Source: Chlorobiota bacterium
Lineage (GTDB): Bacteria > Bacteroidota > Ignavibacteria > OLB7
Assembly (NCBI GenBank): GCA_021296135.1
Contig: JAGWAZ010000013.1
Coordinates: 1-36,635 of the forward strand
Direction: 5' to 3'
Length of the DNA: 36,635 nt
Each line of letters starts with the position of its first letter. Position 1 is the stretch's first letter. The notes beneath the pieces are model-generated. The model worked only from the letters and a program-made list of their open reading frames with translations. It made no database searches and was not told where the DNA came from. Positions 1,103-26,345 of this stretch are shown piece after piece. A program made the position numbers and the translations under genes.

Positions 1103-1190
1103 AAAATCTTCTGGTCTAGAGCCTTCTGTTTACTCTTTACAGGCACCTTCTCTTCCACTATTGACAAAACAACACCGACCTACATCGTCT

Positions 1191-2837
1191 ATGGAATCCC
1201 CGAAAAACGTCAGAGGATGGATTCCCCGCCATCGCAAAGAGCCTCTACCGGATAATCGGATTGGCCTGGTCTTTTTCGGTCTCATCCTTGTTCTCTACCT
1301 GCTGACGATGCAGACCGGTCTTTTCTGGGGTGATCCGATTGAGGGGGTAAAAGCAGCCACTGCTACAGAACGATCCTTCCCACCTCAGCACCTTCTATCC
1401 TCGACAGTCAATGCCAGCATCCTCGCCCTTTTTGGCATTGACCGGGAACCTGCCACCTTTCTTCTCTTGCGAGTAGTGATGATCCTTGCCACGTTGTCCG
1501 GTACTTGGGGTTTCTTTCTTCTGTTGCGTCGATTCAGAGTGGATCGGGTTGTTCTCTTCGGTATTCTGAGTTTATACCTTCTTGCGAATGGTGTTTGGTA
1601 TCACTCCACCACAGTCGAGACCGGCGCAATCCCTCTTTCACTCCTTGTCTGGTCCCTCTACTGGTTGCTTCGTACTGATGTGTCAACAAGGCTTGAGCTC
1701 TTCTTTTCTTTCGCCCTTGTTTCGTTGAGTGTATTGTTCAATCTACAGCAGGCGTTGTTCATCCCGTTGTTTCTGGCCTATGCCCTGACGAGACTATGGC
1801 GTACCCCTGGGTTCTTCTACTCCGTTCTCTTGATAGGAAGTACTATCGTGGTGATCGGAATCTTTCCGTACCTGCTCATAGCTGTGCCGGCTCACGATAT
1901 CAGGTCGATTACGGACTTCGTTTCCTGGTTGACATATCATCCGAATGCCGAGGAGATCGGAAAGATGAGAACGATCGGTGTAGAATCGTTTGGGCGGAGC
2001 CTTTCCGGGCTCTTCACAATGGTTGTGGATGCGCAAGGGGCCACTTCGTGGCTCAAATTCAGGATGAGAGGAGAAGAAGGAATCGGGACGAACCTCGCGT
2101 TCATCGTCAGACTCGCAATGCCGGCTCTCATCCTCGCCGGTCTTGTTTTGCATGTTGTTTTTTCTGCCAGTGAGCGAAAGCAGATAGCCTTCCTCACAAT
2201 CCTTTCACTGTTCAGTTGTTTTCTCTTCGGCCTTGCCTGGCTTGGAAGCGATCCACAATTCTGGCTTCCAGTCTGGCCTTTATTACTGCTCTCGGCCGGG
2301 ATCGGACTTACAAAGTATGCCTGGAAGCGAACAAGATCACGAAGAATAATGGGAGTTATCTTCACCATCTGTTCCCTCCTGTTGTTTCTGATGAATGTTC
2401 CGCGCACATCACCCTCTCTCCTGTTCCCTAATGGAGGGACTGACTTTCAACATGCGCAGGTATTCGCAGGAATAGTGGAACGTGGAGATGTCGTTATTAC
2501 TGCAGGAGGGAAATGGAGCAACTATGTTGAGACCTTGCGTCCGGATGCAGAGGTAATCAACCTGGGACTTCGCATCAGCGAGGTTTCGGGAGCTAAGGGA
2601 GAGGAAGTTATCGCTATTCTTGAGGATCGGATTGAATGTTCCCTGGCAAGAGGAAGAGCCGTGTACATAGAGGGAACGGTAGATTCTCCCGATGTGTTGT
2701 GGTCAAGCGCCTGGGAGGGCTTCAGACTCAAGTATGATCTCCCTCGCCATGAGTTGATGGAAGGACTGAAAAAGTCATTCAGGTTCTCGAACGTTCCCGA
2801 TTACCAGGTCAGTGGCATGGCAAAAATTGAAAGATGA
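1191..2837 (+). CDS. Polytopic membrane protein, glycosyltransferase-39/DUF2723-like
   Basis: Of about 548 residues, the first ~390 are dominated by about ten hydrophobic segments, followed by a soluble C-terminal part of roughly 150 residues. After the first membrane segment comes QTGLFWGDPIEGVKAA, at the place where O-mannosyltransferase-type (GT-C fold) proteins carry an acidic residue in their first periplasmic loop. This suggests a lipid-linked-sugar-dependent glycosyltransferase or related envelope enzyme in the inner membrane, but substrate and acceptor cannot be told. A TTG at 1161 is in frame, but I prefer the ATG at 1191 because the upstream codons are polar and unremarkable. No good Shine-Dalgarno is visible. 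A second membrane protein of similar style lies at 4821-6278. Confidence in a real gene is high, in the family moderate. Confidence 0.8.
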   Translation: MESPKNVRGWIPRHRKEPLPDNRIGLVFFGLILVLYLLTMQTGLFWGDPIEGVKAATATERSFPPQHLLSSTVNASILALFGIDREPATFLLLRVVMILATLSGTWGFFLLLRRFRVDRVVLFGILSLYLLANGVWYHSTTVETGAIPLSLLVWSLYWLLRTDVSTRLELFFSFALVSLSVLFNLQQALFIPLFLAYALTRLWRTPGFFYSVLLIGSTIVVIGIFPYLLIAVPAHDIRSITDFVSWLTYHPNAEEIGKMRTIGVESFGRSLSGLFTMVVDAQGATSWLKFRMRGEEGIGTNLAFIVRLAMPALILAGLVLHVVFSASERKQIAFLTILSLFSCFLFGLAWLGSDPQFWLPVWPLLLLSAGIGLTKYAWKRTRSRRIMGVIFTICSLLLFLMNVPRTSPSLLFPNGGTDFQHAQVFAGIVERGDVVITAGGKWSNYVETLRPDAEVINLGLRISEVSGAKGEEVIAILEDRIECSLARGRAVYIEGTVDSPDVLWSSAWEGFRLKYDLPRHELMEGLKKSFRFSNVPDYQVSGMAKIER

Positions 2838-2879
2838 TCTGAAGCTGCCGGTCATCAGCGTTATGTCGATCTCTGAATG

Positions 2880-3118
2880 TAGAAGTCACCCCCATTCCTC
2901 CTTCTTTCTAAACACACCGTAACCACGTGGGCTACCGATCCGGAGCGTTCAACGATCTCAGTTCGACGTGTCGCCTTTGCTGGGTAAAAATTCGTCCCTT
3001 TCTTTCGTCAGACGGCACTTTATATCATATTGACATTTCTATTGAAACCTGGCCAAGCGGGTTGTATTTCTTGCTGATCAATAAATCATTCATCAAACCA
3101 GTTATTATTACGAGGTGA
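2880..3118 (+). pseudogene. Possible remnant of a T9SS-type C-terminal sorting domain
   Basis: The frame ending at the TGA 3116-3118 closes with DGTLYHIDISIETWPSGLYF and then LLINKSFIKPVIITR. This has the pattern of the last strands of type A type IX secretion sorting domains (...idis.lpsGvY.l.i..........k). About 50 bases upstream another frame gives QFDVSPLLGKNSSL, like the preceding 'lyd.lGk' strand, so a frameshift probably separates them. No long upstream coding sequence is present, so this would be the broken 3' end of a secreted-protein gene. The rest of the 365-bp gap shows no gene. The call rests on pattern resemblance. Confidence 0.4.
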
Positions 3119-3202
3119 CACTATGAACTCGGCTCGATTTTTTCCGTTGATCTTAGGATAAGATCCCGGTTTCCGGCCTAAAATTCGTATGATTACGCCC
3201 TA

Positions 3203-3910
3203 ATGAAAAGAAGAGCGCCTTCATATTACAATAGAGGGGCCTGGCCTTCTCGGCTTTGCACCATATCCATGTTCCTGATTCTTCTTGGTGGGTGCTCAAG
3301 CGCCTCTGAGGCTGAAAATGATTCTATCGAGATCCCTGGAGTTGGGAGTCAGTTTACATCACAGGTGACGCACAGAGTCGGATCGGATGGGAAGTTACGG
3401 CAAGAGGTTATGAAGTTCTCCGTTCAGGTTGCTGAGATGATCCTTGAAGGGAAGGAACAGGTCGTGCAGGTCGTGCAGTTCGCTACCGATACTCTTATCT
3501 CCCTGATCTCCTACGAATCGAACGGCGATCTCTCTCTCTACATGAGCCAGGGGAAGTTCGGAACATGTCAACGGGAACCTCTCTGGTTACTTCTTCGCTT
3601 TGGTGGAGGTCCATCGCTAACAGATACTCTTGTCATCTCTGACGAGTGTGTAGTAGTTTGGAATGGGCGACCTTCTGGTCAGGAAAGGGTCGTTATCGAC
3701 GGCGAGTCGTTCGAAACAACGAGGATTCTTGCCGAACTAAAAGTTTATGTTGCGCCTGGTGATGTTGAAGATGCCGGGATGCACGCAAGGGAATACAAGC
3801 TTTGGTATGCTCCAGAGCTCGGCTATGTTGTGCAGGAGCATATCACCAGTCTCCAGCGTGTCGGCGATCAGGTCGATACGATCGGAATTTCAGAACGGGA
3901 GTTGATGTAG
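3203..3910 (+). CDS. Putative lipoprotein, unknown function
   Basis: The 235-residue protein has a positively charged N-terminus, a hydrophobic segment (about residues 22-31) and the lipobox LLGGC, so it should be exported by Sec, lipidated on the cysteine and anchored in the envelope. The mature part is soluble, acidic and mostly beta-like, without motifs I recognise. It follows a 365-bp spacer with a decayed sorting-domain fragment and precedes a repeat-filled spacer and another lipoprotein gene. A possible internal start (Met23) would still leave part of the signal peptide, but the ATG at 3203 keeps the usual charged leader. Function is unknown. Confidence 0.75.
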   Translation: MKRRAPSYYNRGAWPSRLCTISMFLILLGGCSSASEAENDSIEIPGVGSQFTSQVTHRVGSDGKLRQEVMKFSVQVAEMILEGKEQVVQVVQFATDTLISLISYESNGDLSLYMSQGKFGTCQREPLWLLLRFGGGPSLTDTLVISDECVVVWNGRPSGQERVVIDGESFETTRILAELKVYVAPGDVEDAGMHAREYKLWYAPELGYVVQEHITSLQRVGDQVDTIGISERELM

Positions 3911-3924
3911 TACTCTTTACATTG

Positions 3925-4165
3925 ATAAAGAACGCAGATGGACACAGATAGTGCTACAGATGAATGCAGATAATAGATAGATGACCCGAGATAGTCGATT
4001 ATAGTACTTGTCTTACTGACGCTCGACTCATGGACTTCTACAACAACATAGTGAGCTATTAGCTATTAGTCCTCCTATGGCCGATGCAATGAACCTGACT
4101 CACAACTATTCAACCATTGCACCATTCAACAATATCAACGACTCTTGACTCTTAGACTTTTGTTA
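3925..4165. repeat. Spacer of dispersed ACAGATG-, CCATTCAAC- and GACTCTTGACTC-type repeats
   Basis: The spacer carries AACGCAGATGGACACAGATAG and CAGATGAATGCAGATAATAG (about 3932-3976), then CAACTATTCAACCATTGCAC and CATTCAACAATATCAAC (about 4103-4139), then GACTCTTGACTCTTAGAC (4140-4157). The same word families occur at 8271-8472, 24100-24175, 26860-27060 and 31740-32070. No coding frame is convincing. Confidence 0.6.
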
Positions 4166-4170
4166 TCTCT

Positions 4171-4617
4171 ATGAACTCTATAGGCTCACAACTTTATGTG
4201 CTCAAACCAGCCATCCTTCTGCTGCTTTTCCTCTTTCCTGCTTGTGGAGAGACTGAGGAGCAAGTTGAGCAGACACCCCCTCCGATTATCATGATTGACC
4301 CTCCTCCTCCGGATACTGGGTATAATCCCGAGAATGAAGATGCGTTTGAGTACACGGTCTGGAGAGAGTATTCTGAGTTAGCGACGCAGGTGCCAAGGCG
4401 TTCGGCAGACAGTGTGTTGCGTTCAGTCACCAGCTCTTCTCCGGATCCACGGGTGATAAAAAAGCGACTGAAGCAAGAACTTGAGAAGCTTAATAGGTTG
4501 CAGGATACCATTGCACGCTATACGCTTCACGACAAGTACAATATCTCCTACGATTCAATACAGGCGATTATTGAAGAAGTCGAAGGAAAGATCAAGCGGG
4601 GGGAGATTGAACGATAG
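4171..4617 (+). CDS. Small lipoprotein with C-terminal helical region
   Basis: The 148-residue protein has a short hydrophobic leader ending in the lipobox LFPAC (Cys near residue 25). A proline-rich linker follows (TPPPIIMIDPPPPDTGY, about residues 36-52), then a charged, probably coiled-coil C-terminal half (KKRLKQELEKLNRLQDTIAR, then IEEVEGKIKRGEIE). This layout of anchor, proline spacer and helix is typical of lipoproteins that reach from a membrane into the periplasm, but no family is recognised. A possible alternative start at a later codon is not supported because the leader is needed. It lies between two repeat-rich spacers, so an operon cannot be claimed. Confidence 0.7.
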   Translation: MNSIGSQLYVLKPAILLLLFLFPACGETEEQVEQTPPPIIMIDPPPPDTGYNPENEDAFEYTVWREYSELATQVPRRSADSVLRSVTSSSPDPRVIKKRLKQELEKLNRLQDTIARYTLHDKYNISYDSIQAIIEEVEGKIKRGEIER

Positions 4618-4639
4618 CCGGTTGTATGAAACCGTTCGG

Positions 4640-4817
4640 TAGAGTCTGGAACTGAATAGGGAGGAGCAGTTAACGGTCGAGGTAGAGATTATGCTATTGA
4701 GTTGACTAGTGTAGTAAGCAGAACAGAGCCAAACTGTGCATAAGAGTTGTTGTAGAGATCCTGCTACCTGTAGAGATCCTGCTACCTGTTCACAGACAAC
4801 CCTCCAAGAACTTCTGA
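4640..4817 (+). repeat. Intergenic element, copy A (homologous to 14122-14313)
   Basis: This spacer aligns along nearly its whole length with the spacer upstream of ftsH. Shared blocks in the same order are TAGAGTC..AACTGAA, GGAGGA..AGTTAAC.GT, GTTG, AGAGCCAA, TAAGAG.TG.TG.AGAGA, CTGCTA.CC, and TCCAA..AACTTCTG.AA. It has no open frame and both copies lie just upstream of a plus-strand gene for a membrane protein. It may be a decayed mobile unit, a structured RNA or a shared regulatory leader; the sequence alone does not decide. Confidence 0.55.
4751..4786 (+). repeat. 18-bp perfect tandem duplication inside element A
   Basis: The unit TGTAGAGATCCTGCTACC occurs twice back to back. Copy B at 14122-14313 has only one corresponding block, so the duplication is specific to this copy. 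Confidence 0.8.
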
Positions 4818-4820
4818 ACT

Positions 4821-6278
4821 ATGATACGTGGGAGATTCTACAGGTCTATTGTTGGACTCATCGTTGTCATGCCAATTCTTTACTGGCTGGTTCTGTTCAT
4901 CGCTCCTGAAACGTTCGACCACATCTGGTTCTGGTTTTGGTTTGCAAAAGTAACCCCTATTCCGCTCTGGTGGCTCGTTCTGGTGCCGCTCATTTTAATC
5001 CTTCTTCTGTTTTACACGGTTCCCCAGAACGTCCGTTCATCGTTCGTTGCCCTTCTTTTAATTGCACTGACCGGTTATGCTGTGCAGTGGTCGTTTGCGT
5101 TGATGGAGGGAAGGGGTGTCGAGGCGATGACAGAGAAGATGCTGGATGCACAGATCGGACACTCAGCCTTTGCGCGTGAGGCTATTAGCTCGGTTGACTA
5201 TGGGGAGACTATCAGAACCTATTATGGGCAGGTAAAAGTCGATTCATTGCCTCGCTTTCCCTTTGCAACCAAGCCTCCGGGACATTTTCTGCTCTACATC
5301 GCGACAAATCAGGTTGCTGAGGGTCTGCTCGGAAAGCAGAGAGGGCTCGAACAACAAGTAGAACAACTTGCGCTCTTCGCATCCTTCCTCTGGCCGCTCT
5401 TTACGTTCCTTGCTCTCTTTCCGATGTACGGTCTGGCTCGCTTCTTTCTTGCAGAAACAGAAAGTCGTGCCACGCTTATTCTCTATATCTTCTCCCCTAA
5501 CATTGTTCTCATGACAATGCACTTGGACCAATGCCTGCTACCGCTGTTGTTTCTGACAACGCTCTATCTATTTATGAAAGGAGTAACCGAGCGTATGCTG
5601 TGGCTTCATGGATTGGCCGGTATTGTTGCCGGTATTGCTCTTTTCATTTCATTCTCTATGATTACTCTTTTCCCACTCCTTGCTTTATGGCATGGAGGCC
5701 GGGAACTGTTGACAAAAAAAAGAAAGGGAGATAGCTGGGGCAGGGCTTTGAGGAGATCAGCCGTATCAATCCTGCAACCTCTCGTTCTCTTTGCTGTTGG
5801 CGTTCTTCTTGTGAACGGATTCTTCTCGATTGCATATGGCTACGATCCACTTGCAGCATATCAGCTTGCACACTCCGAGCATAGCCTTTGGAAGATTCAG
5901 GAGTGGGATATAGTACGCACTATCTGGGTCGGCATCCTCGATATTGTTGAGTATGCCGTCTGGATCGGTTTCCCAATAGTGATACTTGCACTTCTACGTT
6001 CTGCCATTTCGTTGAAGCGACTTCGGACTCTTCGACTTCGTTTTTCTGACCCGATGATCCTCTCACTTCTCGTTCTGTTCCTTCTCCTTTCGTTTTTCGG
6101 AAAGACTGTTGCGGAAACCGGCAGACTCTGGACATTTCTCTTACCATTGGTGCTGATTATTGCGGTCATGGGAGGAGGCCTGTTTCCAGTGAAGATACGG
6201 AAGAGGCTCTTTGTCGGAATTCTTGCATTGGGGCTTCTGCATACATTCTTCTTGAAGTGGTTACAGGATTTTGCTTGA
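4821..6278 (+). CDS. Polytopic membrane glycosyltransferase-like protein (GT39/ArnT-like)
   Basis: The 485-residue protein has about ten to twelve hydrophobic segments over its entire length. After the third segment a periplasmic loop contains FATKPPGHFLLYI; the KPPG/KPPL element is characteristic of dolichyl-phosphate-mannose/ArnT-like GT-C transferases, which move sugars from a polyprenyl carrier to protein or lipid on the outer side of the inner membrane. Donor and acceptor cannot be deduced. It shares its general plan with the 1191-2837 protein, but has no soluble C-terminal domain. The 203-bp spacer upstream is the homologous element A. The start is the first ATG after that element, with no strong ribosome-binding site. 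Confidence 0.82.
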   Translation: MIRGRFYRSIVGLIVVMPILYWLVLFIAPETFDHIWFWFWFAKVTPIPLWWLVLVPLILILLLFYTVPQNVRSSFVALLLIALTGYAVQWSFALMEGRGVEAMTEKMLDAQIGHSAFAREAISSVDYGETIRTYYGQVKVDSLPRFPFATKPPGHFLLYIATNQVAEGLLGKQRGLEQQVEQLALFASFLWPLFTFLALFPMYGLARFFLAETESRATLILYIFSPNIVLMTMHLDQCLLPLLFLTTLYLFMKGVTERMLWLHGLAGIVAGIALFISFSMITLFPLLALWHGGRELLTKKRKGDSWGRALRRSAVSILQPLVLFAVGVLLVNGFFSIAYGYDPLAAYQLAHSEHSLWKIQEWDIVRTIWVGILDIVEYAVWIGFPIVILALLRSAISLKRLRTLRLRFSDPMILSLLVLFLLLSFFGKTVAETGRLWTFLLPLVLIIAVMGGGLFPVKIRKRLFVGILALGLLHTFFLKWLQDFA

Positions 6279-16613: not shown

Positions 16614-16645
16614 CCCTCAAAAGATGTTGAGGGGGCTTTTATTTT
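16614..16645 (+). terminator. Rho-independent terminator downstream of ftsH
   Basis: CCCTCAA (16614-16620) pairs with TTGAGGG (16627-16633) across AAGATG, followed by GGCTTTTATTTTAT. It sits about 190 bp after ftsH and overlaps the earliest in-frame ATG (16624) of the next gene, which argues for a later start there. Confidence 0.7.
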
Positions 16646-16722
16646 ATCTGTACGTAATGGCAATCATTAAAGAACAAGCAACATCGGGTCACGGATTGAG
16701 TCAGATTCCCGGACAGATTTCG

Positions 16723-17352
16723 ATGTCGAATGAAATTCGACGGAAGCTGATTCATCTCGGTTCGATCAGCATTCCGGTGGTTTACTGGTTTCTCTCACAA
16801 GAGACGGCGCTGTCGATACTTGTTCCGATGACTCTGATTGCCATCGTGACTGAAATTCTGCGACGCGCCTTCCCGGGATTTGAACGATGGTTTCGCTCCT
16901 TTTTTGGGCCGCTTCTTCGGCCTCATGAGTCGTCTACGCGTCCTGAAATCAACGGCGCAACCTTTGTCTTGATCTCGGCTTGTCTGTGTATAGCGATTTT
17001 TCCCAAAATTATCGCTATCACATCGTTTGCCGTTCTTATTATCAGCGATACTGCCTCAGCTTTGTATGGTCGCCGTTTTGGTAAACGGGAGTTTTTGCGC
17101 AAGAGCGTGGAGGGTTCGGGTGCCTTCTTTGTGACGGCGGTGATTGTCGTCTTTGTAGTTGCATATTTGTCCCATGCACCCAGGGAGTTTGTTGCTTTTG
17201 GCGGGCTTGCTTCGCTCGTTGCGATGGTCGTTGAAGGGCTGAGCGAAGGGGGGAGTTCGATCGACGACAATATGACGATACCTATGGCGTTCGGAGCTGT
17301 GATGTGGGGAGGGCTGGAACTGTGGCAAACCGGGCTGATCCCGGTGTTGTAG
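16723..17352 (+). CDS. SEC59/DGK1/VTE5-family polyprenol/phytol kinase-like membrane protein
   Basis: Members of this family are CTP-dependent kinases for dolichol, phytol or diacylglycerol in the membrane. The 210-residue protein opens with MSNEIRRKLIHLGSISIPVV, the family's conserved RK.iHl element. It continues with NGATFVLISACL, the catalytic-region block ISDTASALYGRRFGKREF with KSVEGS, and the closing DDNMTIPM. About six to seven membrane segments fit the family. Earlier in-frame ATGs at 16624 and 16657 exist, but the first lies inside a terminator and the leader they would add is not conserved-looking; 16723 puts the motif at the normal place. The substrate in this organism is unknown. 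Confidence 0.85.
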   Translation: MSNEIRRKLIHLGSISIPVVYWFLSQETALSILVPMTLIAIVTEILRRAFPGFERWFRSFFGPLLRPHESSTRPEINGATFVLISACLCIAIFPKIIAITSFAVLIISDTASALYGRRFGKREFLRKSVEGSGAFFVTAVIVVFVVAYLSHAPREFVAFGGLASLVAMVVEGLSEGGSSIDDNMTIPMAFGAVMWGGLELWQTGLIPVL

Positions 17353-17518
17353 AGAGTAGCAAATAGTCCCTAAACAAGTGTGATTGATGAGATTTTTCTG
17401 CTCTAAAAGGCCGGAAGGGTCTACCTTGGCAGGTGTGGTGAGTGAAATTATGAGTACTATACCAAGAAAACTAGTCCTCCAATTCAATTATACAGCAGGT
17501 TGCAACTGAGAACAGCAG

Positions 17519-18484
17519 ATGCAAGATCTAAGAAAGTACCTGCCAAAGTCCATCAAGACGGAAGTAGACCTGGACCGACTCATTCCGACATTGGCAAAGT
17601 CCAGCTCTATAAACGCCATAGAAATGGCTCTAAGAAAAGTGCCCACAAAGCACGTACTCCACCTAGCGAACTCGACACAGCTTGATTTCGCAGAGCCCAG
17701 TACCGTCCATCTAGCCGTAACCTCCCCTCCGTACTGGACCCTCAAGCGGTATCGAGAGGGACCGGGTCAACTTGGTCATATTGAGGATTATGAGGAATTC
17801 TTGGAACTACTCGATTCCGTTTGGCAGAAGGTGCTGACAGCGTTGGTTCCCGGCGGTCGATTGATTTGCGTTGTGGGGGACGTATGTTTATCTCGGCGAA
17901 AGAACAAGGGCGAGCATACATGTGTTCCTCTTCATTCCTCAATCCAGGAACGCTGTCGTCGCATGGGATACTCGAATCTTGCCCCGATCATCTGGCATAA
18001 GATCGCAAACGCTTCCTATGAAGTGGATGGCAACTCCAGATTTTTGGGCAAGCCTTACGAGCCAAACGGCGTAATCAAGAACGACATCGAATACATTCTT
18101 ATGCTCAGAAAACCAAGTGGTTACAGAAAACCCGACAAAGCAGCTCGCCTGCTGAGTATGATTTCAGACGCCAACCATAAGCGGTGGTTTCAGCAGATTT
18201 GGCACGATGTTACAGGTGAGTCTACCAAGAAGCATCCGGCGCCGTATCCACTAGAGCTGGCAACTAGGCTAGTGAGGATGTTCAGCTTCGTCGGCGATAC
18301 AGTTCTTGACCCCTTTATGGGGACAGCCACGACGAATCTAGCGGCGGCGAACTGGGGTAGACACAGTATAGGAATCGAACTGGACGAACACTATTTCTCT
18401 ATGGCAGAACGTAGACTTAGAAATGCTGGACAGGATATGTTCTCCACCATAGAAGTGCGTGTCCAGAAACCTGTGGTAGCATAG
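17519..18484 (+). CDS. Beta-class N4/N6 DNA methyltransferase of a type II restriction-modification pair
   Basis: The 321-residue enzyme transfers methyl groups from SAM to an exocyclic amino group in DNA. The catalytic motif IV, TSPPYW (residues 68-73), comes first, and the SAM-binding motif GDTVLDPFMGTATTNLAA (about 258-275) lies near the C-terminus; this order defines the beta class. The SPPY form is frequent in N4-cytosine enzymes but also occurs in adenine enzymes, so the base is not certain. The gene is followed 16 bp later by a nuclease gene on the same strand, which it presumably protects against. It is the first gene of the accessory island; no control-protein gene is visible upstream. 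The recognition sequence cannot be deduced. Confidence 0.88.
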   Translation: MQDLRKYLPKSIKTEVDLDRLIPTLAKSSSINAIEMALRKVPTKHVLHLANSTQLDFAEPSTVHLAVTSPPYWTLKRYREGPGQLGHIEDYEEFLELLDSVWQKVLTALVPGGRLICVVGDVCLSRRKNKGEHTCVPLHSSIQERCRRMGYSNLAPIIWHKIANASYEVDGNSRFLGKPYEPNGVIKNDIEYILMLRKPSGYRKPDKAARLLSMISDANHKRWFQQIWHDVTGESTKKHPAPYPLELATRLVRMFSFVGDTVLDPFMGTATTNLAAANWGRHSIGIELDEHYFSMAERRLRNAGQDMFSTIEVRVQKPVVA

Positions 18485-18500
18485 TTCACAAGGCAGTAGT

Positions 18501-19313
18501 ATGTGCTCAGACTACAGTTCACACGCAGACTATCTGGGGGCGGTGCAGGGAAACGCTGCCAGAAGGAAGTTGCAAGTGGAGCGAGCGCTCTCCGAGGCGT
18601 TCCCCGACTTCATAGAAAAGCGTGAAGTAAGTGTAATTCTGTTCTCATCAATGACCGCTTTTGATTTGGCTGAGGGTATTATACAGTACCCGGTCGTTCT
18701 CAAGCCTTTGATAGCTGCTTGCAACATAGCGGCTAGAGCGATTGAGAGAGATATAGGCATCAAGAATCTGAACACGTACGAGCCACGCCTAACCCGTGAG
18801 TCCGCTAACATTATTGCTGGTTATATCAAGCCATTCTTACCCGAATATTTGGAGATCCCTTCTCTTGGCACGGTTGATCGCGTCGCCTTTGTAGACAAGG
18901 AAATGCGGAAGAATAAGGGGAACTGGGAAAGGAAAATCTCGTCCAAGCTCAAAAAGCATGCAGGAAAAGACTTCAAGAAACGCAAATTCACCATCGGCGG
19001 AGAGGTATTTGAGCTTGACGCGGCCTATCCCGCAACGGGCGATGTTCAGGTGGGAATTGACGTCAAGCGAATAGAGGCAAGACGGGACATCCACAAGAGA
19101 TGTGACGAAATAGTAAACAAAGCACGAAAATTGAAAGAGGCCTTTCCAGATTCCAAGTTCGCTGCCGCGATTTATTATCCTTTCATAGATGAACATGTAA
19201 ATATCCAGCACCGCCTTTACTCCGACGATGTCGACTGTGTAGTTTTCGCGTCTGACGGCGCAGATTCAATCAGAAATGCCGTCTGGAATATGATCGGGAC
19301 GCTGAAGATCTGA
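18501..19313 (+). CDS. Putative type II restriction endonuclease (PD-(D/E)XK-like)
   Basis: The 270-residue protein is probably the partner nuclease of the preceding methyltransferase. A candidate catalytic site is E171-L-D173 followed by D187-V-K189 in the block GGEVFELDAAY ... VQVGIDVKRIEARRD. This has the spacing of the PD-(D/E)XK fold: a metal-binding Asp, then a D/E-x-K strand 10-20 residues on. The N-terminal two thirds are helical and not recognisable, as expected for fast-evolving restriction enzymes. Evidence for function is the position 16 bp after a methyltransferase plus this motif; no named family is claimed. An attC-like site begins about 30 bp after the stop. Confidence 0.72.
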   Translation: MCSDYSSHADYLGAVQGNAARRKLQVERALSEAFPDFIEKREVSVILFSSMTAFDLAEGIIQYPVVLKPLIAACNIAARAIERDIGIKNLNTYEPRLTRESANIIAGYIKPFLPEYLEIPSLGTVDRVAFVDKEMRKNKGNWERKISSKLKKHAGKDFKKRKFTIGGEVFELDAAYPATGDVQVGIDVKRIEARRDIHKRCDEIVNKARKLKEAFPDSKFAAAIYYPFIDEHVNIQHRLYSDDVDCVVFASDGADSIRNAVWNMIGTLKI

Positions 19314-19340
19314 CAGCAATCAGTGAATATGCCTTCGCAT

Positions 19341-19424
19341 ATCACCCAGTTACCACTACGGCGCATTCGCGCCTTGGCCTTTGGCAACCTGCTGCGCGGG
19401 TTGGGCAACTTGAAAACGTTAAAT
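19341..19424 (+). other. attC-like site 1 (integron-type recombination site, left arm degraded)
   Basis: The right arm has L'-like GGGCAAC (19403-19409), spacer TTGAAAAC and R'-like GTTAAAT (19418-19424), fitting GTTRRRY. The left arm has L''-like GTTACC (19349-19354) preceded by ACCCA, but the expected R'' box is absent (GCATATC instead). The centre shares a 29-bp identical block with site 2 (19369-19397 here, 23099-23127 there). Cassette cleavage would fall between G19418 and T19419. Confidence 0.55.
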
Positions 19425-19519
19425 GACATTGGGATGAAATGAGCCACATCCTTATCAGAATATCCCCTAGGATAGGATGAAATATACTGCATTTTCGTGA
19501 TTCATTTATTTTGATTAAA

Positions 19520-20254
19520 GTTCAAGACAACTTAAGAGCTTTGTGATAGACTCCAAGCCCAGTAATGACGCGGAAAAACAGGTATTTCATTCGTTCAAGA
19601 ATCAGTGAGGCCAAACTCAGGCAAAGTATTTGGTTGTTTGCTCTGGATCTGGAGGCGACAACAATTGCTGAATTCTCCGGTATTAGTCGCAATTCGATGA
19701 ATACAATATTGAAGGCTGTCAGAAACATTATTGCCCAGGAGTCTGAAAAAGAAGCCCCTTTTGAAGGATCGGTAGAAGTCGACGAAAGTTACTTTGGAGC
19801 GCGCAGACAGAGAGGCGTACGTGGAGGTGGTACCAAAGGTAAAGTGGTCGTCTTCGGGTTGTAGAAACGCAATGGGAAGGTTTATACCGAAGTCGTGCCC
19901 AATGTCTCTAGAGCCGCTCTGCAAGGCATTATCAAAGGAAAAGTGGCTCTTGAGAGCGTCATTGACTCGGATGGTTTTCGTTCTTACAACGCTCTAGTGG
20001 ATCTTGGTTACAGGAAAGACTACCGGGTCGACCATGGTGGCAATGAATTTGCAGACGGAGCAAGCCCCATCAATGGGATCGAGAACTTCTGGGGCATTGC
20101 AAAAGTCAGGCTGGCCAAATGTAGGGGGCTTTCCAGAAGCACCTTCAATTTGCATTTGCAAGAAGCGGAATTTAGATTGAATCACAGAAAAGAAGACCTC
20201 TATAAATTGATACTCAAACTAGTCAGACAGAACCCTCTTAAGTTGTCTTGAACC
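19520..20254 (+). mobile_element. IS1595-family insertion sequence, 735 bp
   Basis: The element is bounded by perfect 19-bp inverted repeats GTTCAAGACAACTTAAGAG (19521-19539) and its complement (20235-20253). It is flanked by TTGATTAA (19512-19519) and TTGATTGA (20255-20262), an 8-bp target duplication with one mismatch, the size expected for IS1595. It carries one transposase gene with a premature amber codon and sits between attC-like site 1 and the second restriction-modification pair, i.e. inside the second cassette-like unit. Confidence 0.88.
19565..20251 (+). pseudogene. IS1595-family transposase interrupted by an in-frame TAG
   Basis: The frame is continuous over about 229 codons apart from TAG at 19862-19864. 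The first part contains ISRNSMNTILKAVR and VEVDESYFGARRQRGVRGGG and ends KGKVVVFGL. After the stop the same frame continues KRNGKVYTEVVPNVSRAALQ, then VIDSDGFRSYNALVDLGYRK, DYRVDHGGNEF, INGIENFWGIAKVRL. These are the DDE-type ISXO2-like catalytic blocks (DES..., SDG..., HINGIE-like INGIENFW). Relatives normally read 'FGilKR.GKVY' here, so TTG to TAG is the simplest cause. Unless suppressed, no full transposase is made, though the intact inverted repeats could still be mobilised in trans. Confidence 0.85.
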
Positions 20255-20303
20255 TTGATTGATTGTGACCACCATGAGCAAGCGTTAAGACGCCAATGAC
20301 CCG

Positions 20304-21836
20304 ATGGTAATGCGGCCGAAGTCGATAGAATGGACACTTGAAAGGCTACGTAAGCCAATGCAACTCAGTTTTGATTTCGCACGTGAACCCACGGCGGTTA
20401 CGCCCAAGAAAGCAAGTAGCCCAAAAGGCTACACAGGGCTCTATGGTTTTCACAAGTACTGGGGCAAGAAACCTTACGAACCGCTGGCATTCGTGATCGA
20501 ACAATTGACCGACGAAGGCGACACTGTATTAGACCCATTCGTTGGTTCGGGTACTTCTGCGCGTGAATCTCTCATTCGCAATCGCCGATTCATCGGGTTT
20601 GATGTCAACCCGGTGGCGGTCGAGTTGACCAAACTTCTAATTTCGCCGCCTGATTATGACAGCGTGCGTAGCGCTTTTCGTTTCATTGAAAGATCCGTAA
20701 AGGACAAGATTAACGGTACCTATCGTCTAAATGATGGCCGGATTGCTTCACATTATCTCTGGGAAAACGACACACTTACACAAGTGTGGTTACGAGGCGT
20801 TCGTGGAGGTGGACGTGAGGAACTAGCACCCACGGCCCAAGATATCGACCTCGTTGAAGAATATGCCTCCTACCGTTCAGAGCACATCCGTGCGCCCCGT
20901 TTTTTTTCCAACGGCAGAATCAACGCCCACGCAAATCTGTCGATTTCTGACATCATGACGGGCCGGGCTCAGCGAAACTTGGATCTTCTATTGTCCTATA
21001 TCAACGAACTGCCCCCAAATGTTCAGATGCCGATGAAATTGTGTCTGACAGCAGCTTCTGGCCAGATGACCAAGATGGTTTTTGCTGTTACTGGTCGTGG
21101 AAAAATGACAGGAAAGAATTCAGCGAAAGTCGAGGTTGGCAGTTGGGTGATCGGTTACTGGCGTCCGAAACTACATTTTGAGGTCAACGTTTGGAATTGT
21201 TTTGAACGGCGGGTGTCAAAACTCTTAAAGGCCATCAAAGAAGGTGATCCCCTCCAAGGTTCCATAATCTGCGACTCGATGGCACGTTTCTATGAAGCCA
21301 GCTCGCGTTCGTGGGTTGAATGTGCACCCTCTCAGACGGCCATCAGAAGTGTCCGAGAGAAATCGGTAAACCTCATATTGACCGATCCTCCTCACAGCGA
21401 CCGCGTCCCCTATCTTGAACTGAGTGAATTGTGGAATAGCATCCTCGGTTTTGAATCACACTTTAGTTCAGAAATTGTGATTTCTAACGCAAAGGAGCGA
21501 GGCAAAACACCGGACGTGTACAGCCAGGCCATGAACGGCTTCTTCGGCATATTGTCCAGTGTTATGCGAGACGACGCATTTCTTGTGTTGTTATACAACG
21601 CTCGCCAAGCGGCACGCTGGAGGTTTGTCTCCCAGATCATCGACAAATCGGGAGGGTTGAAGTATTTCGGGAAGTTTCCCTGCAATTACTCAGCTGGTTC
21701 CGTGGTCCAAGACAACAGAAAGGGTGGCCTGAAAAACGATATAGCTTTGGTATTTGGAAAACCCGACGCCGATTCCCGTAGGCTTTGTCAACTTGCGAAC
21801 ATTCCGAACTGGTCCAAAGATGCACCGACCAAATAG
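20304..21836 (+). CDS. DNA methyltransferase (N4/N6-type) of a second restriction-modification pair
   Basis: The 510-residue protein has the SAM-binding motif GDTVLDPFVGSGTSARESLI (D77 of DPFVG) near its N-terminus, with FIGFDVNPVAVE as motif II. The catalytic-type motif LILTDPPHSDRVPYLELSEL lies at about residues 357-376. Motif I before IV with a long intervening region suggests an alpha-like order with an internal target-recognition segment. The DPPHSD variant with the following PYLE..ELW element resembles adenine/N4-cytosine methylases often encoded beside nucleases. A DPPY tyrosine is replaced by His here; the consequence is unknown. The next gene begins 6 bp after the stop, and the IS1595 end lies 50 bp upstream, so the native promoter may have been displaced. 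Confidence 0.82.
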   Translation: MVMRPKSIEWTLERLRKPMQLSFDFAREPTAVTPKKASSPKGYTGLYGFHKYWGKKPYEPLAFVIEQLTDEGDTVLDPFVGSGTSARESLIRNRRFIGFDVNPVAVELTKLLISPPDYDSVRSAFRFIERSVKDKINGTYRLNDGRIASHYLWENDTLTQVWLRGVRGGGREELAPTAQDIDLVEEYASYRSEHIRAPRFFSNGRINAHANLSISDIMTGRAQRNLDLLLSYINELPPNVQMPMKLCLTAASGQMTKMVFAVTGRGKMTGKNSAKVEVGSWVIGYWRPKLHFEVNVWNCFERRVSKLLKAIKEGDPLQGSIICDSMARFYEASSRSWVECAPSQTAIRSVREKSVNLILTDPPHSDRVPYLELSELWNSILGFESHFSSEIVISNAKERGKTPDVYSQAMNGFFGILSSVMRDDAFLVLLYNARQAARWRFVSQIIDKSGGLKYFGKFPCNYSAGSVVQDNRKGGLKNDIALVFGKPDADSRRLCQLANIPNWSKDAPTK

Positions 21837-21842
21837 AGGCTG

Positions 21843-22949
21843 ATGATGGAGTTCGATACTGCAATGGCATTGTTTAGCGATGACTGCGTCAGAGAGCTTG
21901 CGGAATCTGATGATGGATTGCGATTCCTCAAGCTCCGTTCGTTATCGCGGCGAGAACATCTGGAGACATTATTTGAGGTGGCGTCTATCACGCCTCAGGC
22001 AAGTTCAGCTCGAGGCATGTTTAAAGAGGCCTTTGAAACGATCGCTGTGGATCAAGAGATTATCAATGAGACTATTTCCCAGATCTACGCATCGGAACGG
22101 AAAGAACGCCGAGCGAAAGAACCGGAACTCGTGAATCAGCTTTACCGTTTGGATGTTTTCGATTGGGGTGGCCTCCATCAAAACAGCTTAGAAAAGACGA
22201 TCGTAGATAACTACGTAAAGAAAATTCGTGATTACGATCACCTATCTCAGAGCATTGAGAACGAGTTGCATAACAGTATGCGAGGCTACGTCTTGTGTTC
22301 TTGGTACAACCATTGGACCTCGATCCTCATTGAAGATATTTTTCGTGACCATGCTGCCGTATTGCCTGCCGTAGGTTTAATCAAGAAAATCGACTTCTTT
22401 CTTAACGGAGTGCCATTCGATTTGAAGGTTACCTATTTTCCAGAGGGTTACATCAAAGATTGCCGTCGTGAAAACAACCAACGACCAGAACTGACGCTTC
22501 TCAGACAATGGGCTCGTAGGAATAGAGTGCCTTTCAGTACCGATCTGCCCGACAGTCGCTTACTTTCAGACTTGTGGAATAAAGCGAGTGACGATCCGTC
22601 GGATGATGGGCAGCAGGTACTGGTCGAGTTGAATACTTTTCGGCAGAAGCTTATCCAGGATGGACAGGTCAACCCATCTAACCTGATAAGATGGCTCTAC
22701 GAAAATCAAGGTGTGCGCCGTTTCGATGCGTCCAATCGGTTATTCCTTGTTCTGATTGATTCATCCAATTTCTTTGAGTCGTGGAAACTAAAACGTGCAA
22801 AACCGCTGCTGGATTCGGAGATAACACGCTTTCTAGATAACGTGTCCTCATCCCCAGGCAGATCTCTTAAGTTCACCTGGGAAGGGTCTACCTATACCGT
22901 AGTCTCCGACGCTATAATCATTACTAAACCGCAAGGCCAGCGCACATAA
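21843..22949 (+). CDS. Putative restriction endonuclease paired with the preceding methyltransferase
   Basis: The 368-residue protein is encoded 6 bp downstream of the methyltransferase. A PD-(D/E)XK-like site is visible in LIKKIDFFLNGVPFDLKVTY: D184, then D193-L-K195 at the right spacing. E164 in WTSILIEDIF is a possible extra acidic residue on the preceding helix. The N-terminal half is charged and helical; the C-terminal region ends in beta-like strands. No named family is recognised, so the function is inferred from the motif and from tight coupling. A second ATG directly follows the first, making the exact start ambiguous by one codon. An attC-like site begins 115 bp after the stop. Confidence 0.72.
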   Translation: MMEFDTAMALFSDDCVRELAESDDGLRFLKLRSLSRREHLETLFEVASITPQASSARGMFKEAFETIAVDQEIINETISQIYASERKERRAKEPELVNQLYRLDVFDWGGLHQNSLEKTIVDNYVKKIRDYDHLSQSIENELHNSMRGYVLCSWYNHWTSILIEDIFRDHAAVLPAVGLIKKIDFFLNGVPFDLKVTYFPEGYIKDCRRENNQRPELTLLRQWARRNRVPFSTDLPDSRLLSDLWNKASDDPSDDGQQVLVELNTFRQKLIQDGQVNPSNLIRWLYENQGVRRFDASNRLFLVLIDSSNFFESWKLKRAKPLLDSEITRFLDNVSSSPGRSLKFTWEGSTYTVVSDAIIITKPQGQRT

Positions 22950-23064
22950 TTCTTGAACGGCATTACAAAGGCCTGCACCTGACCGTTATTCCCCTGCGGT
23001 CCATAGCAGCACGTGAGCTTTTATCGTTAACAGATTCAGCTAGATAGTAATAGTATCCCATATC

Positions 23065-23155
23065 ATTTAACACCCAGTTGCCACTGCGCTGCCCTGTGGC
23101 GCCTTGGCCTTTGGCAACCTGCTGCGCCAGGTTCGCAAACCGGAAAACGTTACAC
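23065..23155 (+). other. attC-like site 2
   Basis: The left arm is canonical: R''-like ATTTAAC (23065-23071, fits RYYYAAC), spacer ACCCA and L''-like GTTGCC (23077-23082). The right arm ends GGAAAAC followed by GTTACAC (23149-23155). CAGTTGCCA on the left also pairs with TGGCAACCTG in the middle with one unpaired base. R'' is the exact reverse complement of GTTAAAT, the start of the upstream unit at 19418, as required if that unit circularises. Confidence 0.6.
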
Positions 23156-23198
23156 GCAAATCATGGCTTCGAAAGCACCTTTCTTAGTAGGAGGTAGA

Positions 23199-23567
23199 AT
23201 GATTACAGGTTTACACCACGCACAGATCACATGTCCCACAGGAATGGAAGACGAGGCCAGAGACTTCTACTGCCGCGTTCTGCAGCTTGAAGAGGTGGAG
23301 AAGCCCGGTGTCTTAAAGAAGCAGGGAGGTTTGTGGCTCAAGGTTGGGGATCGAGATCTCCATATTGGTACCGAAGATGGGGACAATCCCCAGCTGACAA
23401 AAGCACATTTGGCTTATGAGGTCACTGACATTGCATTCTGGAGATCACGCCTGGTGGCGGAAGGCATTGCACTAGAAGATTCAGTTCCTATTCCCGGTTT
23501 CGAGCGCTTCGAGTTTCGTGATCCGTTCGGGAACAGAGTTGAAATGATAATGTCAGTCGGGAAATAG
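23199..23567 (+). CDS. VOC-superfamily (glyoxalase/dioxygenase-like) protein
   Basis: The 122-residue protein has the single-module VOC fold pattern: ITGLHHAQITCP at the N-terminus with a metal-site His, DFYCRVLQLEEVEKP, the central strand LHIGTE, a second half beginning HLAYEVTDI, and the closing RFEFRDPFGNRVEMIM with the last metal-site Glu. Family members include glyoxalase I, ring-cleaving dioxygenases and antibiotic-binding or -modifying proteins; the substrate here is unknown. GGAGGT at 23189-23194 lies 4 bp before the ATG at 23199, deciding that start over the in-frame ATG at 23163. The gene fills its own short unit between attC-like sites 2 and 3, the usual size of an integron cassette. 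Confidence 0.85.
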   Translation: MITGLHHAQITCPTGMEDEARDFYCRVLQLEEVEKPGVLKKQGGLWLKVGDRDLHIGTEDGDNPQLTKAHLAYEVTDIAFWRSRLVAEGIALEDSVPIPGFERFEFRDPFGNRVEMIMSVGK

Positions 23568-23611
23568 TCCATTTGCTATGCTCCAAGCAATCGGATCGAA
23601 GCCACGGCAGC

Positions 23612-23694
23612 ATGTAACATGTCCGTGCACGGCTTCGGCTACGCCCTTCACCCAACCGCTGCGCGGTTCAGGGGCACTGAAACGCTGGCTAAAT
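23612..23694 (+). other. attC-like site 3
   Basis: R''-like ATGTAAC (23612-23618) complements six contiguous bases of GTTACAC at the start of the upstream unit (23149). Then follow spacer ATGTCC, L''-like GTGC, a central hairpin CAACCGCTGCGCGGTT resembling the middle of sites 1 and 2, L'-like GGGGCAC (23671-23677) and spacer TGAAAC. The R' box is imperfect: GCTAAAT at 23688-23694, one base off GTTRRRY. TAAATGACAT after it matches the sequence after site 1. Confidence 0.45.
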
Positions 23695-23751
23695 GACATG
23701 GGGAACCCAAACCATCACCTGGGTGAATCGTTTGTCGGAGGCTGACTACCA

Positions 23752-23970
23752 ATGAGAAAGCCATTTGGGGAAGACGCTTATTCAGATATGAATGCTTCCG
23801 CATTTGGTGGACCGAGCCAGGAGGTTCGGGACGTCGCGTTGTGCCTACTAACTGGTTCGAGCGTCCTTGACCTGGGATCAGGTGAAGGACGAAACGCTCT
23901 CTTCCTGGCAGAACGCGGTTCTGATGTGACCGCCGTGGACATTTCGGAGGTTGGGGTTCGCAAGTTGTAG
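23752..23970 (+). pseudogene. Truncated class I SAM-dependent methyltransferase
   Basis: From the ATG at 23752 the frame contains SSVLDLGSGEGRNALFLAER and GSDVTAVDISEVGVRKL, the SAM-binding motif I (DLGSGEG) and motif II (DIS) of small-molecule methyltransferases related to tellurite-resistance TehB. It stops after 72 codons, where about 190-200 are expected, and the following sequence is non-coding repeat material with no continuation in other frames. The break near 23968 marks the right edge of the accessory island. The next downstream attC-like site, if any existed, has been lost with the 3' end of the gene. Confidence 0.7.
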
Positions 23971-24184: not shown

Positions 24185-26197
24185 TTAATACCTCATCAGT
24201 TTCTCAACTATTTCATGCAGCCGATTCTTTGCCATAAACTGATCCTCCAGTCCTTTGTTAAACGGAACCGGCGTGTCGAGTGAGCCACAACGCATTACCG
24301 GAGCATCGAGTTGATCAAACAGATGTTCGCCAATAACGGCCCCAATCTCTCCACCGAAACCTCCGGCCAGTGTTGCCTCATGCACGATGAGAGCACGCCC
24401 AGTTTTTCTCACCGATGCGAAGACTGATTCACGATCCCAGGGGATCAGCGTACGCAAATCAATTACCTCCAGATCATACTCCGGCAGGACTTCGGCAACC
24501 TCCAATCCCCAAACCACCCCGATCCCCCACGTAATAATGCTTGCTCCGGATCCCTCCCGTGCTATCCGTGCCTGACCTAATGGTATCGTATAGTATTCTT
24601 CCGGTACAGGGCCTCGTCTACTGCGGTAGAGGTATTTATGTTCGAAAAACATGACCGGGTTTGGTTCACGAAGTGCCGATGTAAGCAAGCCTTTGGCATC
24701 GTACGGCGTTGACGGAAAAACAACTTTCAGGCCGGGAATGTGAGTAAACCATGCTTCGATGCTTTGGGAGTGAAATGGGCCGGCAGCAACGCCCCCACCT
24801 GTCGGCATACGAATTGTTGTGTTGATAGAGGTTCCCCAACGGTAATGGGTCTTTGCAAGATTGTTGGCGATCTGATTGAATCCTTCGGAAGCGAAGTCCG
24901 CAAACTGCATCTCCACAACCGAAGGGATGCCCCTGATTGAAAGACCAAGAGCGGCGCCGATGACCGCGGCCTCACATAAGGGAGTGTTTCGCACCCGGTC
25001 AAATCCGAAGCGATCGGCCAGTCCCTCGGTTACCTTGAAGACGCCACCATAGTGAGCAACATCCTGTCCCATAAATACGAGCGAAGGATCGTGCTCCATT
25101 CCCTGTCGTAATCCCTGAACGAGGGCGTCGACCAGGCGGAATTCCGGTCCTGCTTCATGGGGAAGGGCATTCCAGACGGCAGGAGATGGAGCATGGACTT
25201 CGGCAAGCTCGGTCTCAATTACCGGTGTTGGTTCGGGTGCGTTTATCATGTGTTCGACACCCGCTTCAATCGCCTCGGCGTGTGCTTCACGTGTTATTCT
25301 CATCTTCTCATCGGAAAGTACTCCCCGAGCAATCAGCCAGTGTTCAAAGGTTGATACGGGATCTTTGCGTTCCCATTCCTCAATCAACTCTTTGGGGATG
25401 TATGCCACACCCGAAGCCTCTTCATGCCCTCGTCGTCGGAACGTCATTGCCTCGATAATGACCGGACGTCCCGTCTCTCGTACTTCCTTTGCCGTGCGAC
25501 TGACAATTTTGTGGACCTCAAGTACGTTGTTCCCATCGATGGTAATTCCTTCAATGCCGTAGCCGATTGCTTTGTCTGCGAGCTGCGAACAGCGGTATTG
25601 TTCGTGTACCGGCGTAGAGAGTGCATAGCCATTGTTTTCGATCATGAAAATGACCGGAAGGTCCCAACAAGCTGCGAGGTTCACCGCTTCATGAAAATCC
25701 CCCTGGCTTGTTCCTCCATCGCCGATAAAGGCAAGTGTGATTGAGTTGTCATGCAGGAGTTTACCGGCAAGAGAAATGCCATCGGCGACCCCAAGCATCG
25801 AGCCGATATGCGAAATCATTCCGATCACACGATGCTCCGGAGCTCCAAAATGGAAAGAGCGGTCGCGGCCCTTGGTATATCCATCCGACTTCCCTTGCCA
25901 TTGGGCAAACAGCTTGTTAAGCGGGAAGTTGCGTGTTGTGAAGACTCCAAGATTCCGATGAAGAGGAAGTATCCAGTCAGTCTCCCTCAAGGCCGAAGTT
26001 GCTCCAACAGAAATTGCCTCCTGTCCGATACCGGAGAACCACTTGCTGATCCTTCCCTGGCGAAGCAGAAGAAGCATCTTTTCTTCGATCATACGCGGCA
26101 ACAGAAGGCGACGGTACATCTCACGAAGTGAGAAATCATCGTGGCCGTTTAGATCGAAGTGAATTGTCGATTGAGGCTGACCTGTCACGATACTCAT
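24185..26197 (-). CDS. 2-oxoacid dehydrogenase E1, fused alpha and beta subunits
   Basis: E1 is the thiamine-diphosphate enzyme that decarboxylates a 2-oxoacid (pyruvate or branched-chain type) and loads lipoyl-E2. The 670-residue chain joins an alpha part (residues 1 to about 330) to a beta part (about 345-670). The alpha part has GIGQEAISVGATSAL, HRNLGVF and the TPP motif FIGDGGTSQGDFHEAVNLAA ... IENNGYALSTP. The beta part has FMGQDVAHYGGVFKVTEGL, NTPLCEAAVIGAALGLS, EMQFADF and GGVAAGPFHSQSIEAWFTHI. Single-chain E1 of this kind occurs in Bacteroidota and relatives. An in-frame ATG 48 bp upstream (26245) lies inside a hairpin repeat, so the ATG at 26197 is preferred. No E2 or E3 gene is nearby, so the substrate stays open between pyruvate and 2-oxoisovalerate. 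Confidence 0.9.
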   Translation of the reverse strand: MSIVTGQPQSTIHFDLNGHDDFSLREMYRRLLLPRMIEEKMLLLLRQGRISKWFSGIGQEAISVGATSALRETDWILPLHRNLGVFTTRNFPLNKLFAQWQGKSDGYTKGRDRSFHFGAPEHRVIGMISHIGSMLGVADGISLAGKLLHDNSITLAFIGDGGTSQGDFHEAVNLAACWDLPVIFMIENNGYALSTPVHEQYRCSQLADKAIGYGIEGITIDGNNVLEVHKIVSRTAKEVRETGRPVIIEAMTFRRRGHEEASGVAYIPKELIEEWERKDPVSTFEHWLIARGVLSDEKMRITREAHAEAIEAGVEHMINAPEPTPVIETELAEVHAPSPAVWNALPHEAGPEFRLVDALVQGLRQGMEHDPSLVFMGQDVAHYGGVFKVTEGLADRFGFDRVRNTPLCEAAVIGAALGLSIRGIPSVVEMQFADFASEGFNQIANNLAKTHYRWGTSINTTIRMPTGGGVAAGPFHSQSIEAWFTHIPGLKVVFPSTPYDAKGLLTSALREPNPVMFFEHKYLYRSRRGPVPEEYYTIPLGQARIAREGSGASIITWGIGVVWGLEVAEVLPEYDLEVIDLRTLIPWDRESVFASVRKTGRALIVHEATLAGGFGGEIGAVIGEHLFDQLDAPVMRCGSLDTPVPFNKGLEDQFMAKNRLHEIVEKLMRY

Positions 26198-26217
26198 TAT
26201 CTGGATAGTAGACCTTT

Positions 26218-26237
26218 CCCCGGCGTGAACGCCGGGG
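26218..26237. repeat. Perfect hairpin repeat followed by CTA
   Basis: CCCCGGCGTGAACGCCGGGG is a near-complete palindrome and is followed by CTATGCACGCC. It is of the same design (stem, then GGGCTA) as 36397-36416 and 36527-36546. It sits just upstream of the E1 start codon. Confidence 0.65.
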
Positions 26238-26345
26238 CTATGCACGCCTGCTTTTTCTTATGTCCCCTTGTCTCCTTGTCTTCCCCCTCCCCTTGTCCCC
26301 CTGTCTTTGACTCTCGACTCTTTAACCCATACTCAATAGACTAAA

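What the first reader, a model, noticed from the sequence alone, without database searches (positions are those of the whole stretch)
17400..23970. Integron-like cassette cluster without a visible integrase, carrying two restriction-modification systems
Three related sites separate consecutive plus-strand units: methylase+nuclease; IS+methylase+nuclease; VOC protein; truncated methyltransferase. In integrons, a cassette's first bases (TTRRRY, after a shared G) and the R'' box (RYYYAAC) near its 3' end are complementary because they meet in the excised circle. That is what is seen. The unit starting at 19418 begins GTTAAAT and its 3' site starts ATTTAAC (23065), complementary in 7 of 7 bases. 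The unit starting at 23149 begins GTTACAC and its 3' site starts ATGTAAC (23612), complementary over six contiguous bases. L''/L'-like boxes are spaced 5-8 bases inside. No tyrosine recombinase is in the window, so it would be a CALIN-type cluster. Two complete R-M pairs in such a cluster, in this likely phylum, would be noteworthy.
Basis: partly seen in the sequence, partly recalled or inferred. Interest (0 to 1): 0.82.

Follow-up and report, generated by a model that had tools for sequence, protein, structure and literature searches.

The report
Integron-like cassettes with divergent recombination sites
A bacterium with no integron integrase gene carries two candidate DNA-defence gene pairs in what look like mobile gene cassettes, bounded by recombination sites of a kind that the integron-site model built here does not recognise and that recur in other genomes.

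Summary
The three sites are real and related, and the cassette reading largely survives, with corrections. S1 (19337-19424) and S2 (23065-23155) are 81% identical; S3 (23612-23690) is a weaker relative. An attC covariance model that I built from 147 sites in integrase-bearing integrons does not recognise them (at most 3.7 bits). That methylase/nuclease pair has homologues inside a true integron of a related genome. The S sites are a separate, divergent attC-like family. It recurs on another contig of the same genome and in genome G504, with probable members in G178. Across these four contigs, each unit's first bases are complementary to the R'' box of its own 3' site (10 links, 67 of 70 bases). 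Several sites fold as attC-like bottom-strand hairpins. No integron integrase was found in this genome. The G178 array lies beside a broken XerA-like tyrosine recombinase that lacks the IntI-specific domain. Best reading: a degraded CALIN-like cassette cluster built on divergent attC-like sites. Which recombinase acts on them is open.

The parts
17519..18484 (+). Unit 1 DNA methylase (N6_N4_Mtase)
   Evidence: PF01555 E 7e-36; PADLOC Type II methyltransferase; homologues on plasmids up to 52% identical
18501..19313 (+). Unit 1 candidate restriction nuclease (inferred)
   Evidence: No family match; 53% identical homologue on a viral contig near a homologue of the methylase; conserved D...DVK motif by eye
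19337..19424 (+). Site S1: divergent attC-like site; R' GTTAAAT at 19418, R'' position GCATATC not consensus
   Evidence: 81% identical to S2; profile and cross-genome matches; not hit by the attC model
19514..20259 (+). IS1595-family remnant, transposase reading frame broken
   Evidence: Inverted ends, arms 19514-19552 / 20221-20259; NF033547 and PF12762 fragments
20304..21836 (+). Unit 2 DNA methylase
   Evidence: PF01555 E 4e-14; 38% identical homologue inside an integron of G179
21843..22949 (+). Unit 2 candidate restriction nuclease (inferred)
   Evidence: 45% identical homologue beside the methylase homologue in G179; conserved IDFF...FDLK motif; no fold match
22960..23031 (+).
   Evidence: R2 22.7 bits, E 0.0036; R1 10.3 bits; 80% identical over 54 nt to an attC in L143
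23065..23155 (+). Site S2: divergent attC-like site; R'' ATTTAAC at 23065, R' GTTACAC at 23149
   Evidence: R'' exact complement of S1's R'; 81% identical to S1; consensus fold with S1 and 504B
23163..23567 (+). VOC/glyoxalase-family protein, cargo of the third unit
   Evidence: PF00903 E 2e-10
23612..23690 (+). Site S3, the most degraded of the three; R'' ATGTAAC at 23612, R' degenerate (GCTGGCT)
   Evidence: 6/7 complementary to S2's R'; profile trained without it only E 1.6; 42 bits with the model that includes it
23752..23970 (+). Truncated class I methyltransferase (TehB-like N-terminus)

Best explanation
This is a degraded, integrase-less cluster of gene cassettes. Its boundary sites (S1, S2, S3) belong to a divergent attC-like family. 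In each unit the first bases after the previous site's G (TTNNNN) are complementary to the R'' box of the unit's own 3' site, as expected if a tyrosine recombinase joined circular cassettes at G/TT on a folded bottom strand. Unit 2 is composite: a methylase/nuclease pair with its own decayed ordinary attC lies inside a unit bounded by S1 and S2, so it most likely entered as an ordinary integron cassette and was later carried in a divergent-type unit. The cluster can probably no longer rearrange by itself, because the genome has no integron integrase. Shown: the sites, their relatives in other contigs, the complementarity rule, absence of IntI, and the integron context of the R-M homologue in G179. 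Inferred: single-strand recombination, the order of events, restriction activity, and the identity of the recombinase.
For: S1, S2 and the G504 sites 504A and 504B form one sequence family by leave-one-out profiles. A profile trained only on this genome's sites finds three G504 sites at E 1.5e-4 to 5e-3; the full profile hits no integrase-bearing locus at E<=1. Ten unit-to-site links in four contigs match 67 of 70 bases, permutation p 5e-6. An unguided scan of the G178 contig gives 4 links against 0 in the reversed-order control. Ordinary arrays obey the same rule, as a positive control. 504B, 504C and 178a fold on the bottom strand better than shuffles, z -4.1, -4.0 and -2.4. S1, S2 and 504B share a fold with 7 compensated pairs. 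Cargo in the other contigs is cassette-like: sulfotransferase, GNAT, APH, nucleotidyltransferase, cupin, beta-lactamase fold. A decayed ordinary attC follows nuclease 2, and the same R-M pair sits in a true integron in G179.
Against: No S site reaches significance with the ordinary attC model. S1, S2, S3 and C126b alone fold no better than shuffles. S1 and S3 share sequence beyond the predicted crossover point (AAATGACATNGGG). Some box positions in the other contigs were chosen with the rule in mind, so p 5e-6 is optimistic. The looser chain test does not exceed chance for the window or G504 alone. No related genome with single units missing was found.
Confidence: 0.72

Rival explanations
1. 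A refinement of the best explanation: S1-S3 are ordinary attCs of an unsampled integron lineage and were moved by a normal IntI, now lost; my model simply lacks that lineage.
For: The arm layout overlaps that of ordinary attCs: L-helix offsets are 1-3 and 4-5 in most S-type sites, and ordinary sites range from 5/5-6 to 2/5. Clade-specific attC models exist because attCs differ between taxa (PMC8352920; PMC9024848). G001, a genome of the same family, has one IntI over the cut-off and one below it.
Against: None of about 100 held loci around integron integrases has an S-type site at profile E<=1. The strongest S-type stems are nearly perfect L helices without the usual bulged bases (178a, 178b, 504C, by inspection). 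The one recombinase next to an S-type array is not IntI.
Confidence: 0.45
2. A second refinement: the S-type sites are recombined by a different tyrosine recombinase, of the XerA-like kind seen in G178, not by IntI.
For: The G178 array of four sites lies about 650 bp downstream of such a gene. Ordinary IntI loci carry no S-type sites. The S-type sites score poorly with the ordinary model.
Against: Single co-occurrence; the gene is broken by a stop codon; the G178 sites are only probable members by sequence. The window genome has no similar recombinase among its TIGR02249 hits. A published statement holds that the IntI-specific domain is necessary for integron recombination (PMC9668308).
Confidence: 0.2
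3. S1-S3 are dispersed palindromic repeats (REP or MITE-like), and the complementary ends are chance or palindrome ends.
For: S1 and S3 share bases beyond the predicted crossover. The sites contain GC-rich inner hairpins. Short complementary chains are common by chance.
Against: R'' boxes match the preceding site's R' (67/70) far better than the same site's R'. The sites are not dispersed: the own genome holds only the three here and two on C126. Units carry typical cassette cargo.
Confidence: 0.12

Closest known systems
CALIN (cluster of attC sites lacking integron-integrase; IntegronFinder, PMC9024848)
   Same: Tandem units in one orientation, bounded by sites with R''/R' boxes, no intI in the genome, one decayed attC recognised by a covariance model
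   Different: The three boundary sites are not recognised by the ordinary attC model; CALINs are now reported by default on at least two attC sites, and here only one is model-supported
Integron gene cassettes carrying restriction-modification systems
   Same: The second methylase/nuclease pair has homologues inside a true integron of G179 with IntI and attCs
   Different: Here the ordinary attC is decayed and the pair lies in a larger unit bounded by S-type sites, with an IS remnant in it
Taxon-specific attC families (PMC8352920)
   Same: Sequence families of attC-like sites with the R''-spacer-L''-loop-L'-spacer-R' order
   Different: Not found beside any IntI here; strong members have nearly perfect L stems; the family is present in very few of about 400 genomes sampled in the phylum

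Membership tests
Integron / CALIN | IntI present (complete integron) or absent (CALIN) | tested here: met
   Absent: no TIGR02249 match over cut-off in a 99.8% complete genome; the two best candidates are Xer-like and lack the IntI region. This fits a CALIN, not a complete integron
Integron / CALIN | Two or more attC sites recognised by an attC covariance model | tested here: not met
   One recognised (22960-23031); S1-S3 at most 3.7 bits. Model built here, not IntegronFinder's
Integron / CALIN | Cassette start complementary to R'' of its own 3' site | tested here: met
   7/7 and 6/7 in the window; 10 links in four contigs, 67/70 bases; some box positions chosen with the rule in mind
Integron / CALIN | Bottom strand folds into the attC hairpin | tested here: inconclusive
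   S1-S3 alone no better than shuffles; consensus with 504B supported by 7 compensated pairs; 504B, 504C and 178a fold well
Integron / CALIN | Extrahelical bases that set strand choice | tested here: inconclusive
   Strong S-type stems look bulge-free; S1 and S2 show a mismatch or single bulge by inspection; function not testable here
Integron / CALIN | attI site | not tested
   No integrase gene in the genome to anchor a search
Type II restriction-modification system | DNA methylase gene | tested here: met
   PF01555 in both units; PADLOC Type II methyltransferases
Type II restriction-modification system | Cognate restriction endonuclease | tested here: inconclusive
   Conserved pairing and PD-(D/E)XK-like motifs but no family or fold match

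The most novel reading that the evidence does not exclude
The S-type sites belong to a second cassette-capture system, distinct from IntI integrons. It would use attC-like hairpin sites but be served by an XerA-like tyrosine recombinase without the IntI-specific domain, as in the G178 contig, and would be missed by integron software that relies on IntI and ordinary attC models.
Probability: 0.2. Interest if true: 0.88.

Novelty: new variant of a known kind. Interest (0 to 1): 0.64.

Why it matters
If these sites recombine, cassette arrays exist that ordinary attC models do not see, so cassette-borne defence and other genes are under-counted. The G178 array beside a non-IntI recombinase makes testable whether the IntI-specific domain is always needed to capture cassettes at folded single-stranded sites. 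The composite unit 2 also looks like an ordinary integron cassette carried inside a divergent-type unit.

Tried and rejected
Rfam scan of the window: no match. The inner 20-mer CCTTTGGCAACCTGCTGCGC in viral contigs hits only a phage transposase coding sequence, which I take as coincidence. Further S-type patterns in viral contigs gave only coding coincidences or nothing. Plasmid searches with S2, the decayed attC and the G504 sites gave nothing convincing. The inner motif across the class of G504 gave only G504 as genuine. Structure prediction of the two candidate nucleases was uninformative. The plasmid methylase H84 has no homologue of nuclease 1 directly beside it. The N-terminal part of the G178 recombinase has no relative in viral contigs. 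TnpF of pHH1107 has no S-type array around it. Synteny with relatives did not define insertion ends. A generic attC search of the whole own genome returned nothing, but its first-look filter also lost the known 22960-23031 site, so it says little.

Full report
What is in the window. The window is bases 1-36635 of a 47.3-kb contig of a 2.86-Mb genome assembly in 132 contigs, 99.8% complete. Between the gene at 16624-17352 and a dehydrogenase gene on the other strand (24185-26245) lie, all on the plus strand: a DNA methylase and an unassigned gene; site S1; an IS1595 remnant; a second methylase and an unassigned gene; a decayed attC; site S2; a VOC gene; site S3; and a truncated methyltransferase. 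The methylases are secure (PF01555; PADLOC Type II). The two partner genes match no family. They carry PD-(D/E)XK-like motifs by eye, and homologues lie beside or near methylase homologues elsewhere, so 'restriction nuclease' is inferred.

The sites. S1 and S2 are 81% identical over 85 nt. S3 resembles them more weakly. S1's own R'' and S3's R' are not consensus, and no left boundary of unit 1 was found.

Test against ordinary attC. I collected 80 named loci around integron integrases and 19 stretches from relatives. From 28 seed attCs I built a covariance model (R1), and from its 147 hits a second one (R2). In the window, R2 finds one significant site: 22960-23031, 22.7 bits, E 0.0036. It starts 11 bases after the second nuclease's stop codon and is 80% identical over 54 nt to an attC in a cyanobacterial integron (L143), so it is a decayed ordinary attC. 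S1, S2 and S3 score at most 3.7 bits and, folded alone, are no more stable than shuffled sequence. IntegronFinder's model could not be run.

The second R-M pair is an integron passenger elsewhere. In G179, a genome of the same class, both genes have homologues side by side (38% and 45% identical). They lie about 10 kb from a true integron integrase (414.7 bits), among attCs found by R2.

The S family elsewhere. A DNA search of 396 genomes of the phylum led to contig C64 of genome G504, where S-type sites separate small units. A sequence model of the family (R3) then found two more sites on contig C126 of the window's own genome (32.6 and 27.5 bits) and one on contig C33 of G178 (21.3 bits). 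Leave-one-out profiles recover S1, S2, 504A and 504B (E 1e-15 to 6e-3), with 504C and S3 weaker. A profile trained only on this genome's sites recovers three G504 sites at E 1.5e-4 to 5e-3, but the G178 site only at E 1.2; in the other direction, training without this genome finds S1 only at E 0.06. No integrase-bearing locus is hit by the full profile at E<=1. The G178 sites are therefore probable, not proven, members by sequence. None of these contigs' sites is significant with R2.

The cassette rule. In the four contigs I could read ten links from one site's R' to the next site's R''. Seven are exact and three are 6/7: 67 of 70 bases, permutation p 5e-6. Boxes match the preceding site's R' much better than their own site's R'. 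This is what circular cassettes inserted at G/TT produce and what plain palindromes do not. Caveats: some boxes were located knowing the rule, and a looser unguided chain test gives no clear excess over shuffles for the window or G504 alone. An unguided scan with an arm requirement gives 4 links against 0 control links in G178. Ordinary arrays score up to nine-link chains against about two in shuffles.

Folding. 504B, 504C and 178a fold on the bottom strand into the R-spacer-L hairpin, z -4.1, -4.0 and -2.4; C126b does not, z +1.65. S1, S2 and 504B share a consensus fold with 32 pairs, 7 of them kept through changes on both sides. At most 4 of 500 shuffles do as well on any measure, but this rests on only three sequences, and adding 504A weakens it.

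Which recombinase? No IntI was found in the window's genome. Its TIGR02249 hits are well below cut-off, and the two best are Xer-like proteins that lack the IntI-specific region. The G178 contig has, about 650 bp upstream of its first site and in the same direction, a tyrosine recombinase at 898-1635 of L253, broken by one in-frame TGA. It matches NF040815 (XerA-like, 163 bits, cut-off 220), lacks the IntI insert when aligned to an IntI, and is 44% identical to TnpF beside tet(X3) on pHH1107, around which I saw no S-type array. One co-occurrence does not prove function. The literature searches found attC diversity and clade-specific models (PMC8352920, PMC9024848) and the statement that the IntI-specific domain is necessary (PMC9668308), but no description of these sites; most subscription journals are not in the library.

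Verdict. The locus looks like a degraded cassette cluster. It is not a standard CALIN, because only one site meets the attC model and the other three belong to a divergent attC-like family. Unit 2 looks like an ordinary integron cassette nested in a divergent-type unit. Whether the family was moved by an unsampled IntI or by a different recombinase is the open question.

Noticed in passing
L252 (G000:C126), 487-2050: A second S-type array in the window's own genome, with a sulfotransferase, GNAT and APH-family genes; two exact 7/7 unit/R'' links (GTTAGGC/GCCTAAC and GTTAAAT/ATTTAAC), the last site truncated.
   Followed up: yes
L253 (G178:C33), 898-5490: XerA-like tyrosine recombinase with a single in-frame TGA stop, followed by four attC-like sites and three units (DUF3800, cupin and beta-lactamase-fold cargo).
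   Followed up: partly
L175 (G504:C64), minus strand: Array of four S-type sites with APH, nucleotidyltransferase and a reversed sigma-factor-like gene; from memory the cargo looks foreign to this phylum, so the contig might be a binning contaminant.
   Followed up: partly
window 19418-19432 and 23688-23702: S1 and S3 share AAATGACATNGGG beyond the predicted crossover point, which simple cassette insertion does not explain.
   Followed up: no
L230, 3890-7855; L231: A viral contig has homologues of both unit 1 genes plus a DUF262-like gene between them; a plasmid of Paraburkholderia terrae pairs the methylase with DUF262 and HEPN genes. The window's unit 1 lacks these partners.
   Followed up: partly
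L050 (G034:C7) minus strand; L056 (G016:C5) minus strand: Integron arrays with long (about 150-nt) attCs whose arms look ordinary; default cmsearch with my first model reported only one weak hit in L050 (16.8 bits) and none in L056 at E<=1, so long loops reduce its sensitivity.
   Followed up: no
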